Shown here piece after piece: positions 38,814 through 51,565 of a stretch of 64,000 nucleotides of DNA. Under the pieces are notes generated by a model that worked only from the letters and a program-made list of their open reading frames with translations, did no database searches and was not told the DNA's origin. A program made the translations under genes and the position numbers. Positions within the stretch are counted from its first letter, which is position 1, and every line of letters begins with the position of its first letter. This DNA comes from Branchiostoma floridae (lineage: Eukaryota > Chordata > Leptocardii > Amphioxiformes > Branchiostomatidae): positions 20,244,646 through 20,308,645 of the forward strand of contig NC_049981.1 in assembly GCF_000003815.2 (NCBI RefSeq), read 5' to 3'.

Positions 38814-39193
38814 CACCCCCATGAAACTCCTTTTCCGCCGTACGCCGAAAATATCGCCGTACCCGCTAAAAACTATCGCCGTACCCGCTAGGCTCGCCGT
38901 ACCCGCTAAAAAATATCGCCGTACCCTAAAAATCTCGCCGTACCCGTCCCTTTCCGCCGTACGAAACAGCCGACACCGCTCAGCCACAGGGCCTACTCAA
39001 ACGAAAGTCGCGTCTAAATACCCTGTACGGCAACGATACACGGTCTCAAATAGCCTATGCTATGGGAAACATCCCTGGCCACCTATCTGCCCAGCGGCGT
39101 TGTACAAATCGCACCCAATCCTGAGAACACTTCTGCAAACTGTGGTGAGAAGCGGTTTCGAGAAGCGGAAATCAACCGCGTAACCCGGAAGTG
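38814..39193 (+). repeat. Left terminal inverted repeat with GCCGTACCC subrepeats
   Basis: The outer 130 bp hold about seven copies of GCCGTAC, mostly as TCGCCGTACCCGCTAAAAA. These are candidate transposase binding sites. The 120-codon ORF across the TIR is identical in both termini and is probably not a gene. Confidence 0.9.
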
Positions 39194-39253
39194 AGCTTCG
39201 CATCATCATCACCAAGCGCACGAATAGACAACAACTTGAGCAAGACCTTGCCT
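39184..39253 (+). promoter_or_regulatory. Promoter and 5'UTR exon of the nuclease gene at the TIR inner edge
   Basis: CCCGGAAGTG (an ETS-type site) ends exactly at the inner TIR boundary. A donor CT/GTAAGTTC at 39253 matches an acceptor at 40272 just before the coding start. The same site is present in the right TIR facing the other gene. Confidence 0.5.
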
Positions 39254-40013
39254 GTAAGTTCACAATTTTATTCATAGTGCAGATATAGCATGACCCTTTT
39301 ATTCCTGCCCTTTCAGAGAGTCACTGTAACGTTTAAGATATGCCATTGCAGCGGATTTAACTAGTATATTATAACCCAGTAGCGTTTGATTTGTGGGCTG
39401 AATGGTTTGGAAGGGGGAGGGGCGATCATGAGAAATTCTTGTTAGTAGTAACATTTATTTTGAAAAGCATGCCACTAGAGGTCAACTACTAGTAATAACT
39501 GCAGTTCTTTATAAGATGTTGAATTAAGAACAAATGAAGTGTTTTAAATGACGATGATCTGAGTCAAATAAAAGTTGCATAGTTTTAATCAGCTGGCAAT
39601 TTAATAAATGGCTTGTGTCATGATCATCTTTTGTATTATCTCAGGTAATGCAACACATCAAAGAGAAGGGGTAAAAATACTTCAATGGACTTTGATTGTG
39701 CTAAATACATAGTAAAAAGACACCTGGTGTGTTGCTAGTTGACCATATGTGACTTGTAAATGTATTTGCTTTTGTCTGGATTAAAATCACAACATTCTGA
39801 TGTTGAAATTAATAGACTGGAAAATAATAAACCGAATGTCAGGAACATTTTGCATCAGTACAATCACTTAACATTGTAGAGTAACACATACAGGAACAGA
39901 TCACATGGTGTGCAACTGATTTGGTGAATGACAGATGGTTAGAAATCTCAGCTTGCATTCAATATCATTATGTGATGACTTGAGTGAATTGTGCTATTAA
40001 AGCTTGCCCCTAC

Positions 40014-40144
40014 TCTCCAAGCAGAGGTTGATGGGGAAAGTTGTGACCTTTTTCCTTTTATGCCATCTTTTTCTGAGCTAAGGCGCCAGGGACAGCTGAC
40101 AGAAAAAGATGTTACGATTTTCCCCATCAACCTCTGCTTGGAGG
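40014..40144. repeat. 131-bp long imperfect hairpin
   Basis: The outer arms pair over 25 of 26 bp (AAGCAGAGGTTGATGGGG with its complement). CATCTTTTTCTG and CAGAAAAAGATG pair further in. It lies in the 5'UTR intron of the nuclease gene inside the large transposon. Confidence 0.75.
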
Positions 40145-40297
40145 AAACTTCACACCTATGTTGGATTGAACCTGATCTGCACTGTTTTTTTACTAAGACT
40201 GTAGGTGAACATTAACTGTATTTAGTTTAATACTGAAATATTTTTGACCCACTTATCCAACTTTCATTGCAGAAAAGAACTTCCCATTGTACCAAAA

Positions 40298-49021: not shown

Positions 49022-49485
49022 TGATATTGTAAATTTGCACTATACTTTTGTAGCATATTAAGAAAACAATCTAAACTATTTTTGAAATTCACATTTCCTT
49101 TTTTTTTGCCATGTGTAATCTTATTTCAAAGTGAAATACTGGTAGCATTGTCAAATCATTTAATGCTTTCAGTACTAATTCTGGACTTATATTCAAAGAT
49201 CCTTCATTATGAATGCATTGATTGCAATTTCTCAAAAGTGTGCATTACAACTGTACTTTTAATTAACCTTTTCTTTAATTTGTACATGGTATTTTGCCAA
49301 CTGCAATGTTAACCTTTTTTCAAAGTGGAATGATGGTACTAGTGGCCTTGATAAATTGGTTGATTGATTTGAATGCTAATTCTAAAGATCATTATCATAT
49401 TCTTATCTCAAATGATGATGATGGAAATGGTGCATACAATATAAGCAATGATGTAAAGTTGAATATAATGCAGGATGATGGTCAT

Positions 49486-50662
49486 TTATGTTGAGTTCTT
49501 GTGTACTGTTGCAAGGTGGCGTGCCAGCTGCCTAGATCCATGGTAGGTTTTGTTGCACAAGTCGCATGTCCTCAGGTCCTCATGTGTGCTCATGTGTCTT
49601 GTTAAGGATTGTCTCTGCTTGAACGATGCATGGCACTGAGTGCACTTGTGCACCTTTGCCTCCTCACCCTCATGTGTCTTCATGTGATCTGTCAGATGAC
49701 ACTTCTTGGAAAAGGCTTTTCCACATGTGTTGCATGATTTTTGAGGGAGGTGTGCCTTGCTCCGATGATTGTATAATTGAGCCTTGGATGAAAATGTGAG
49801 GTTGCAGGATTTACAGTTGTGTTGTGTTGGTTTATGCATGTGACTATGCTTTTGGAAACCACTGTAGGATCTGAAGGACTTTCCACACTCAGGACAGAGG
49901 ACGCAGTTATGCTGGAATTCTATGTGTTTTTTTAGAGCAAACCTTTCATGAAAAGCTTTTCTGCATGTGTTGCAAACATGTGTAGCTCTGTGCCGAAGGC
50001 AATGTTTTGTGTATTTTGCTTCTAGCACATCTTTTCCGCATGTGTCGCACAGGATGGTATTCGTGGACGCTAAGGAGGAAGAAGCAAGCTATCGGTTATT
50101 TGAGTATGTACACATACATGTAGACTTGATGCAACAATATACACAATTCAAAATACAAATAAGGATTCAGACATGTACAGCTTGTTCTCTAGTGTTCTTA
50201 ATATCACATGTGTTCTACATTATACTTATAGAAGTGAATGAATCAATAAAGCTTACCTGCAAATGTGTCATTTGTGTCCTGACCTGTGACTTCAGGCGCT
50301 GGGGTGTCCCCTGTGTCTCCAGGTGCTGTGGTATGGGTTTCCCCTGTGTCTCCAGGTGCTGTGGTATGGGTTTCCCCTGTGTCTCCAGGTGCTGTGGTAT
50401 GGGTTTCCCCTGTGTCTCCAGGTGCTGGGGTATGGGTTTCCCCTGTGTCTCCAGGTGCTGGGGTATGGGTTTCCCCTGTGTCTCCAGGTGCTGGGGTATG
50501 GGTGTCCCCTGTGACTCCAGGTGCCGGGGTATGGGTGTCCCCTGTGTCTCCAGTTGTTGGGGTGTCCCCTGTGACTCCAGGTGTTGGGGTGTCCCCTGTG
50601 ACTCCAGGTGTTGGGGTGTCCCCTGTGACTCCAGGTGTTGGGGTGTCAGTGATGATATTCAT
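49486..50662 (-). CDS. C2H2 zinc-finger protein encoded by the large transposon
   Basis: Coding exons 50662-50257 and 50069-49486 join in phase 1 to 329 aa. Residues 1 to about 130 are Pro/Thr/Gly/Asp-rich tandem repeats ([11 protein letters not shown], then GDTPTPGVT). The second exon encodes seven C2H2 fingers, for example [21 protein letters not shown] and [21 protein letters not shown]. The first finger ([20 protein letters not shown]) has wide histidine spacing. The stop is at 49488-49486, 465 bp from the stop of the nuclease gene on the other strand. Likely role: sequence-specific DNA binding, perhaps to the GCCGTACCC repeats of the TIR, which is inference. A 5'UTR exon in the right TIR is likely. 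The start at 50662 follows a possible acceptor (CCACCACCAG) by two bases. Confidence 0.85.
50282..50655 (-). repeat. Coding minisatellite of the zinc-finger gene
   Basis: There are about seven 33-bp units, then several 27-bp units, all multiples of three. The C-poor antisense strand produces long spurious ORFs in other frames. Confidence 0.92.
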
Positions 50663-51185
50663 TTCTGGTGGTGGGAGTGTGATTCAACCCACGATGGAAT
50701 ATCTGTGATTGTGTACAAGTTGCATTTTTATGCTGCAATCTCATCAAGTCACCACATTGCAGTAACACAATCCCACTATGTTATAAAACACCCAGAAGTC
50801 ACATGCTAAACTCTTACAGAGATCTTATTAATTGCCCCACATTACCCTATCTATAACTATTATTATTATAACTATAGACCCATTAAGAGACCCCTGTGTA
50901 CAGACATGTCCAGACATATATCATCATTTAAACCACTGCTATTGAAAACTTTCCTGTTGTTGCATATAACGTTGACGTTATGGAAATTCATAGTAGAACG
51001 CAATTCTGGCCGGCATTTGATGTTACCATTTGTATAATGCTGCTGTTATAACGTTAATTATATAAAACCGCACATTTCACGCATTAATAGTCAAAATCTA
51101 CTTGACGTTTCACCAACCTTTTTACAACACCTCTCTGCAAGCTGAAACGGGTACCAAACAAGTTTCCCGCCACAGAGGATTGTGA

Positions 51186-51565
51186 CACTTCCGGGTTACG
51201 CGGTTGATTTCCGCTTCTCGAAACCGCTTCTCACCACAGTTTGCAGAAGTGTTCTCAGGATTGGGTGCGATTTGTACAACGCCGCTGGGCAGATAGGTGG
51301 CCAGGGATGTTTCCCATAGCATAGGCTATTTGAGACCGTGTATCGTTGCCGTACAGGGTATTTAGACGCGACTTTCGTTTGAGTAGGCCCTGTGGCTGAG
51401 CGGTGTCGGCTGTTTCGTACGGCGGAAAGGGACGGGTACGGCGAGATTTTTAGGGTACGGCGATATTTTTTAGCGGGTACGGCGAGCCTAGCGGGTACGG
51501 CGATAGTTTTTAGCGGGTACGGCGATATTTTCGGCGTACGGCGGAAAAGGAGTTTCATGGGGGTG
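51186..51565 (-). repeat. Right terminal inverted repeat
   Basis: This 380-bp inverted copy of 38814-39193 includes the GCCGTACCC subrepeats and the inner CCGGAAGTG site, here facing the zinc-finger gene. Confidence 0.9.

What the first reader, a model, noticed from the sequence alone, without database searches (positions are those of the whole stretch)
38814..51565. A 12.75-kb two-gene DNA transposon that I cannot place in a known superfamily
Seen: 380-bp inverted termini with no visible difference, CAC start, TAACT on both sides, two intact convergent multi-exon genes. One encodes a PD-(D/E)xK nuclease protein, the other a zinc-finger protein. The two-gene, tail-to-tail layout with CAC ends and 5-bp duplications recalls ProtoRAG/Transib elements, but the proteins look unrelated to RAG1/RAG2. 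This could be a new superfamily or a derived lineage of one.
Basis: partly seen in the sequence, partly recalled or inferred. Interest (0 to 1): 0.95.

Follow-up and report, generated by a model that had tools for sequence, protein, structure and literature searches.

The report
Lancelet transposon with embedded second nuclease
A 12.75-kb jumping gene in the Florida lancelet carries a transposase that seems distantly related to the fruit-fly P element, with a second DNA-cutting enzyme built into it and a partner zinc-finger gene, a combination that may be a new superfamily of transposons.

Summary
In detail: identical 380-bp inverted ends starting CACCCCC, flanked by TAACT, in Branchiostoma floridae. 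Mobility is shown by other copies: 10 of 12 fetched TIR pairs elsewhere in the genome have their own 4-6 bp duplications. Gene 1 (NCBI LOC118411598, extended here) and a convergent C2H2 zinc-finger gene recur together in two diverged families, one complete with a 6-bp duplication, one damaged at its right end. Both genes are under purifying selection (window vs C16). Gene 1 is not RAG-like. A YqaJ/lambda-exonuclease domain sits between two segments that separately resemble the RNase H fold of P-element/THAP9 transposases; joining them improves the Pfam match in 3 of 4 members tested, though only one match spans both aspartates. Most likely reading: a P-like DDE transposase split by a second nuclease. 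It fails P-superfamily features (8-bp duplication, THAP), so I do not file it there. In three families the left end carries seven sites at about 20-bp pitch with a different motif each, suggesting family-specific end recognition. The C-terminal catalytic glutamate rests on conservation only; both structure predictions failed; Repbase/Dfam could not be searched.

The parts
38809..38813 (.). target site duplication, left (TAACT)
38814..39193 (+). left terminal inverted repeat, 380 bp, starts CACCCCC
38836..38962 (+). subterminal array of seven CGCCGTAC sites (starts 38836, 38855, 38877, 38895, 38917, 38936, 38955)
40298..40776 (+). gene 1 coding exon 1 (low-complexity repeats)
   Evidence: splice model; outside the NCBI model
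40914..40994 (+). gene 1 coding exon 2
   Evidence: splice model; outside the NCBI model
41304..41350 (+). gene 1 coding exon 3
   Evidence: splice model; outside the NCBI model
41638..42528 (+). gene 1 exon 4: pre-catalytic region and first RNase H half with putative catalytic D153 (AFDGR...TGEVDLAG; P0001 numbering)
42841..43008 (+). gene 1 exon 5: start of the YqaJ nuclease domain
43147..45869 (+). gene 1 exon 6: YqaJ/lambda-exo domain (E392, D434, E453, K455), second RNase H half with putative D673 (SGDGAFEYM), low-complexity repeats, SAP-like stretch, DxxH motif (D1174, H1177)
46156..46226 (+). gene 1 exon 7
46601..46724 (+). gene 1 exon 8
47120..47304 (+). gene 1 exon 9 with candidate catalytic E1339 (AEQYF)
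48718..49021 (+). gene 1 exon 10 and stop
49486..50069 (-). gene 2 exon 2: C2H2 zinc-finger array (6 fingers by pattern) and stop
50257..50662 (-). gene 2 exon 1: low-complexity repeat region
51186..51565 (-). right terminal inverted repeat, 380 bp
51417..51543 (-). subterminal array of seven CGCCGTAC sites, right end
51566..51570 (.). target site duplication, right (TAACT)

Best explanation
An autonomous, recently mobile cut-and-paste DNA transposon. Gene 1 is the transposase: an RNase H-fold (DDE) enzyme distantly related to P-element/THAP9 transposases, whose fold is interrupted between the first and second catalytic aspartate (D153 ... D673) by a YqaJ/lambda-exonuclease-type PD-(D/E)xK nuclease, and again between D673 and a DxxH motif by low-complexity repeats and a SAP-like stretch. 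Proposed mechanism: gene 2's zinc fingers (or gene 1's own DNA-binding part) recognise the seven-site arrays in the TIRs and pair the ends. The DDE site cuts the 3' ends and joins them to target DNA with a stagger of about 5 bp. The embedded nuclease cuts or trims the other strand, doing the job that TnsA does for Tn7 (recalled). Each TIR also carries the promoter of the gene beside it. Shown: mobility, an open two-gene structure, the nuclease domain, a two-gene layout kept in two further families, purifying selection. Supported but not proven: split similarity to the P-type RNase H N-terminal half. Inferred: catalytic triad, role of the nuclease, role of the zinc-finger protein, promoter role, that this copy is still active.
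For: Mobility: 10 of 12 further paired copies have their own 4-6 bp duplications. Layout: the C16 relative (9,739 bp, 343-bp TIRs 97.7% alike, CACCCCC ends, 6-bp duplication CTGTAT) and the C15 relative (328-bp TIRs, 99.4%) carry the same transposase plus a minus-strand zinc-finger gene 43% and 39% identical to the window's. Selection, window vs C16, pN/pS: first-half exon .163/.816, YqaJ .201/.677, D2 region .199/.736, SAP-DxxH .214/.806, zinc finger .362/.748. RNase H: Pfam PF21787 (TNP-like_RNaseH_N) matches 3 of 6 members of A2, best 0.0012; in P0002, 552-622 = profile 64-127 of 137, over its D2, D619. Joining the D1 and D2 segments gives 24.7 bits in the C11 copy (D2 part alone 18.9, D1 part alone none, swapped order 19.1), 24.2 in P0002 (whole protein 15.3, swapped 16.7), 17.4 in the window protein (whole protein none), none in C5; cut-off 24.6. 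Separately, the first half aligns by hhalign to a true P-like transposase of the same genome: score 32.5, 0 of 60 shuffles reach it, best 23.3. YqaJ residues E453 and K455 are invariant in 6 of 6 rows. DxxH is in 7 of 7 rows; the E in 4 of 5 rows that extend so far.
Against: The PF21787 scores are marginal: one joined construct is just above the cut-off, C5 has no match, and only in the C11 copy does the match span both aspartates; in P0001 and P0002 it begins at the strand after D1. I chose where to join. hhalign probabilities were only 38% (first half) and 52% (joined); the swapped construct scored as high (37.4 vs 37.5) because only the D1 half aligned, and the second half alone did not align to the P-like protein (score 18.0). 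The C-terminal part gave no Pfam match for 3 of 3 sequences and no hhalign similarity to the P-like protein (scores 11.9 and 9.1, below the mean of the shuffles), so DxxH and E rest on conservation. In P0004, the fifth row that extends there, the E is absent; I take this as a gene model lacking the exon. Both AlphaFold models were useless (mean pLDDT 38 and 39). No activity or expression data. Duplication length varies (4-6 bp).
Confidence: 0.7

Rival explanations
1. It is an ordinary though divergent member of the P superfamily (or of its relative Kolobok), with lineage-specific inserts.
For: PF21787 was the only transposase domain found by Pfam above noise (one joined construct also gave Tf2-1_C at E 0.2); D-D-DxxH-E order as in DmTNP (passages of PMC8230255).
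Against: 4-6 bp instead of 8-bp duplications (P) or TTAA (Kolobok); no THAP match; no GBD or RNase H C-terminal Pfam match; only the N-terminal half shows similarity.
Confidence: 0.2
2. The PD-(D/E)xK nuclease is the main recombinase and the RNase H similarity is spurious.
For: The YqaJ domain has the strongest annotated match; the RNase H matches are marginal.
Against: Clean few-bp duplications fit strand transfer by a DDE enzyme. Two separate halves point to P-type RNase H by two methods, and the D positions are conserved. YqaJ proteins are not known to join DNA (recalled).
Confidence: 0.1
3. It is a ProtoRAG/Transib element with diverged proteins.
For: CAC ends, about 5-bp duplications, convergent genes (PMC7204232 passages).
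Against: No RAG1 or RAG2 similarity in Pfam or PDB sequence searches (that these libraries hold RAG entries is recalled); beyond CAC the ends (CACCCCC) do not follow the RAGL TIR consensus given there (CACTWMCAAAC...).
Confidence: 0.01
4. It is a PHIS/ISL2EU element, whose known members carry a YqaJ gene.
For: ISL2EU elements encode a YqaJ protein (PMC4482050 passages).
Against: AT 2-bp duplication, separate YqaJ ORF, THAP and PHIS-type DDE are expected; none is seen.
Confidence: 0.01

Closest known systems
P element / THAP9 transposons
   Same: RNase H N-terminal half (PF21787, weak), order D-D-DxxH-E, RNase H fold interrupted by an inserted domain, internally deleted copies
   Different: 4-6 bp not 8-bp duplications; 330-380 bp TIRs; no THAP or GBD found; the insert is a nuclease and sits between D1 and D2, not between beta5 and alpha4; second gene
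ProtoRAG / RAG-like transposons and Transib
   Same: CAC ends, about 5-bp duplications, two convergent genes between TIRs
   Different: no RAG1/RAG2 similarity found; partner is a C2H2 protein; 330-380 bp TIRs with seven-site arrays
Dada transposons with an inserted DEDDy exonuclease (Laccaria, Ectocarpus)
   Same: an exonuclease inserted inside a DxxH-type DDE transposase
   Different: different nuclease fold and insertion point (there between second D and DxxH); Dada lacks TIRs and targets small RNA genes
ISL2EU (PHIS superfamily)
   Same: element encodes a YqaJ nuclease
   Different: there a separate ORF; AT duplications; other DDE family
Tn7 TnsA/TnsB (recalled)
   Same: a PD-(D/E)xK nuclease paired with a DDE transposase to cut both strands
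   Different: prokaryotic, two separate proteins; not compared here

Membership tests
P superfamily | P-type RNase H N-terminal half (PF21787) | tested here: inconclusive
   3 of 6 members match natively (best E 0.0012); 3 of 4 joined constructs match, 1 above cut-off and only that one over both aspartates
P superfamily | 8-bp target site duplication | tested here: not met
   5 bp in the window element, 4-6 bp in 10 of 12 copies, none in 2
P superfamily | N-terminal THAP domain | tested here: not met
   no THAP match in P0001 or in the exon-1 frame; exons 2-3 (about 43 aa) not scanned
P superfamily | GTP-binding insertion and RNase H C-terminal domains | tested here: inconclusive
   no Pfam match for 3 of 3 C-terminal sequences; hhalign not significant
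P superfamily | transposases alignable over the whole catalytic region at 1e-4 (superfamily criterion quoted in PMC4482050) | tested here: not met
   only the N-terminal half shows similarity; one P-like protein compared
P, hAT, MuDR, Kolobok, Dada group | C/DxxH motif between second D and E (PMC9587614 and PMC3706591 passages) | tested here: met
   D1174xxH1177 in 7 of 7 rows; motif only
Transib / RAG-like | 5'-CAC termini and 5-bp duplications | tested here: met
   CAC at both ends of 13 of 13 elements; duplication 5 bp in 7 of 13, 4 or 6 bp in 4, none in 2
Transib / RAG-like | RAG1-type core and RAG2-type partner | tested here: not met
   no match; partner is C2H2
ISL2EU | AT duplication, separate YqaJ ORF, THAP/PHIS DDE | tested here: not met
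Kolobok | TTAA duplication | tested here: not met
   0 of 13 elements
Dada | no TIRs, insertion into small RNA genes | tested here: not met
   380-bp TIRs; no tRNA (ARAGORN) and no Rfam match in the window
YqaJ / lambda exonuclease domain | profile match and PD-(D/E)xK residues | tested here: met
   best 2.9e-13, 3 of 6 members (window protein just below cut-off); E453 and K455 invariant
all named superfamilies | Repbase/Dfam entry | not testable with these tools
   no such library on hand

The most novel reading that the evidence does not exclude
A previously unnamed superfamily of cut-and-paste transposons. One polypeptide holds two nuclease sites, a P-like DDE site split by a lambda-exonuclease-type PD-(D/E)xK site, and a companion zinc-finger protein co-evolves with a seven-site array of about 20-bp pitch whose geometry is kept while its sequence is replaced from family to family. 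It would be a eukaryotic single-chain counterpart of the TnsA/TnsB division of labour and an independent invention of the RAG-like two-gene, CAC, 5-bp design.
Probability: 0.4. Interest if true: 0.85.

Novelty: new variant of a known kind. Interest (0 to 1): 0.72.

Why it matters
If right, it shows a DDE fold tolerating a second, unrelated nuclease between its first two catalytic residues, and gives a testable single-protein solution for cutting both strands at a transposon end. Three families with matching end arrays and matching zinc-finger genes offer a natural series for how transposon end recognition switches while the architecture stays, in the same animal group in which ProtoRAG was found.

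Tried and rejected
RAG/Transib, ISL2EU, Kolobok and Dada were considered and fail tested features (membership table). Protein searches of about 5.8 billion sequences found relatives only in Branchiostoma: 1 protein, then 1, then 6, among them two of B. belcheri. The first and third scored only the 7,988 and 7,995 candidates sharing most words, and the second had 791 candidates, so absence elsewhere is not shown. I recall similar uncharacterised proteins in corals; not tested. Viral contigs and phage records gave nothing. PDB sequence searches gave nothing relevant. AlphaFold on P0002 and P0003 with 4 and 5 sequences failed, so no fold search was made. C-terminal comparison with the P-like protein failed, as did its comparison with the second half alone. 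The first fragment alignment (A1) was poor and replaced by A2. Literature searches (listings, with passages read from six papers) showed me no paper on a P-like transposase with a YqaJ insert; the library holds open-licence papers only and I saw the listed rows only.
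Full report
The element. The inverted arms at 38814-39193 and 51186-51565 are 380 nt and identical, with TAACT on both outer sides. The window lies on contig C3 of a 513-Mb assembly, and gene 1 is NCBI LOC118411598 of Branchiostoma floridae. In the same genome the TIR has 49 matches, the window's two arms included; 40 of 102 candidates were scored, so this is a lower bound. I fetched 20 stretches, 12 of which (L031-L042) hold two TIRs facing each other. Apart from L041 (7.5 kb) these elements are 2.9-3.9 kb; their TIRs are about 83-93% like the window's (an arm is interrupted or incomplete in L040-L042), and all 12 carry patches of the element's interior at about 70-85% identity, so they are deleted relatives rather than copies of this very element. 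Counted at the CAC ends: 6 of 12 have a 5-bp, 3 of 12 a 4-bp and 1 of 12 a 6-bp duplication, and 2 of 12 have none. The other 8 stretches (one-ended, degraded, of fold-back type, or overlapping L041) were left out of this count.

The genes. Gene 1 has ten coding exons with GT-AG introns, giving 1,690 aa. The public model (P0001, 1,480 aa) starts at residue 211 and is identical from there; exons 1-3 are my prediction. Residues below use P0001 numbering. Gene 2, on the other strand, encodes a repeat-rich N-terminus and C2H2 fingers (six by pattern). I saw no third gene among the frames listed (by eye). By position, each gene starts inward from its own TIR; that the TIRs are promoters is inference.

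Relatives in the same genome. A protein search gave 41 matches, the window's own exons included, which fall into several families plus fragments: C16 (59-88% identical by exon), C15 (47-66%), C5 (34-35%), three copies on C6, C11 and C1 (29-35%; mostly 96-99% alike to one another in DNA), and another on C1 (28-35%). C16 is a complete element of 9,739 bp at 13099936-13109674 with 343-bp TIRs (97.7%), CACCCCC ends, a 6-bp duplication CTGTAT, and a minus-strand zinc-finger gene 43% identical to the window's. C15 has 328-bp TIRs (99.4%), a CACCCCC left end and a zinc-finger gene at 39%; its right end lacks the outer 24 bp and is followed by a copy of at least 23 bp of the left flank, so its duplication cannot be judged. 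Ends of C5, of the trio and of the other C1 copy were not obtained. No zinc-finger gene was found in what I hold of them, but that does not reach their ends. Between window and C16, synonymous differences are near saturation (pS 0.68-0.82) while pN is 0.16-0.21 in the four gene 1 segments tested, the YqaJ domain among them, and 0.36 in the zinc-finger exon. Both genes and the nuclease have therefore been kept by selection.

The nuclease. The window protein matches lambda-exonuclease/YqaJ profiles weakly but consistently, below the two curated cut-offs, and relatives match strongly (YqaJ 2.9e-13 at best, 3 of 6 members; two of the other rows lack the start of the domain). The PD-(D/E)xK set E392, D434, E453, K455 is my reading of the alignment; E453 and K455 are invariant.

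The transposase core. Pfam found no transposase in the whole window protein, but PF21787, the RNase H N-terminal half of P-element/THAP9-type transposases, matched 3 of 6 family members; in P0002 and P0004 the matched stretch includes D2. In a true P-like protein of this genome the same profile covers both aspartates within 148 residues (profile 2-132). In the present family the first aspartate (FDGR ... TGEVDLAG) lies 520 residues before the second, with the YqaJ domain in between. If the domain is split, removing the insert should improve the match. It did in three of four members: C11 copy 24.7 bits against 18.9 for the second half alone, none for the first half alone and 19.1 for swapped order; P0002 24.2 against 15.3 whole and 16.7 swapped; window protein 17.4 against no match whole; C5 no match. 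Only the C11 match (profile 14-126) runs over both aspartates; the other two gain only the strand after D1 (profile 50 or 51 onward). Independently, the first half aligned to the P-like protein with score 32.5 alone and 37.5 in the joined profile; the best of 60 shuffles scored 23.3 and 23.2, and the reversed sequence 11.7. The swapped profile also scored 37.4 and the second half alone 18.0, so this comparison supports the first half only. Downstream, DxxH is in 7 of 7 rows and an E in (A/C)EQ(Y/F)F in 4 of 5 rows that extend so far; P0004, the fifth, ends differently, probably a missed exon. DmTNP has D230, D303, D339 of its DxxH, and E531 (PMC8230255, passages); here the order is D153, D673, D1174, E1339, so the first two intervals are far longer (520 and 501 against 73 and 36) and the last is similar (165 against 192). 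The C-terminal half gave no significant match to P-like sequences, so the E is a proposal. A SAP match exists only in the C5 relative (0.0022, partial, below cut-off).

The ends. In the outer 200 bp, the window TIR shares the first 17-19 bp with C15 and C16 (84-88%) and little else; C15 and C16 share almost nothing that BLAST finds. A box further in (TIR 235-297) is 78-79% alike between window and C16. Yet each left tip carries seven sites: CGCCGTAC at TIR positions 23-142 in the window (also at its right end), CACCTCCGG at 17-139 in C15, CCCCC at 28-150 in C16 (plus one in its terminus), with mean spacings of 19.8, 20.3 and 20.3 bp. The C16 motif was chosen after looking, and its most frequent 8-mer was matched by 3 of 200 shuffles; the motif-free self-match peaks at lag 40-41 in all three, reached by 5 (window), 0 (C16) and 0 (C15) of 1000 shuffles. 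Same number, pitch and place but different sequence fits a DNA-binding partner that changes specificity by family. Gene 2, present in all three (6, 7 and 6 fingers by pattern in window, C16 and C15) and diverging faster than gene 1 between window and C16, is the obvious candidate; gene 1's own N-terminus is the alternative.

How it probably works. Cut-and-paste by the DDE site with a stagger of about 5 bp, with the embedded nuclease acting on the other strand or trimming ends. Precedents in kind: Dada transposons of Laccaria and Ectocarpus carry a DEDDy exonuclease inside the transposase (PMC3706591, passages), and ISL2EU carries a separate YqaJ protein (PMC4482050, passages). The P element cuts its second strand 17 bp inside the end, by an order and mechanism not known at the time of that review (PMC7776569, passages).

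Novelty. By the criterion quoted in PMC4482050 (alignment over the entire catalytic region at 1e-4) it does not qualify as a P element on this evidence, and it fails RAG/Transib, Kolobok, Dada and ISL2EU features. Whether Repbase already holds it is unknown. I rate it a new variant of a known kind, with a fair chance of being a new superfamily. On rechecking, confidence was lowered slightly (0.72 to 0.70) because only one joined match spans both aspartates, and the nuclease-only rival raised from 0.08 to 0.10.

Noticed in passing
L045-L048 (four places on C13, C18, C17, C5 of the genome): Fold-back elements, palindromic over about 880 bp of the fetched stretch in three of the four, whose arms combine inner TIR sequence of the window family (TIR 181-358, about 84%) with sequence that by eye resembles the C16 TIR; ends not determined.
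   Followed up: partly
G000:C15:965500-976200 (L083, L084): The right end of the C15 element lacks its outer 24 bp and is followed by a copy of at least 23 bp of the left flank, as if from faulty repair or one-ended joining.
   Followed up: partly
C6:27784910-27788620, C11:285528-289285, C1:31667188-31670896: Three copies mostly 96-99% alike of a distant relative (29-35% identity) that looks less intron-rich: a recently multiplied family whose ends were not obtained.
   Followed up: partly
window 15932-17152 (+): Long frame that looks by eye like a reverse transcriptase of a non-LTR retrotransposon.
   Followed up: no
window 18457-19026 (-): Frame with a GIY-YIG-like stretch (YIGETERSLKTRFLEHKR), by eye like a Penelope-type endonuclease.
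   Followed up: no
window 51832-52636: 28.8 copies of a 28-bp tandem repeat starting 267 bp outside the right TIR.
   Followed up: no
window 44658-45092, 40400-40735, 50302-50563: Minisatellites inside coding exons of both genes (132-, 90- and 33-bp units, all multiples of three).
   Followed up: no
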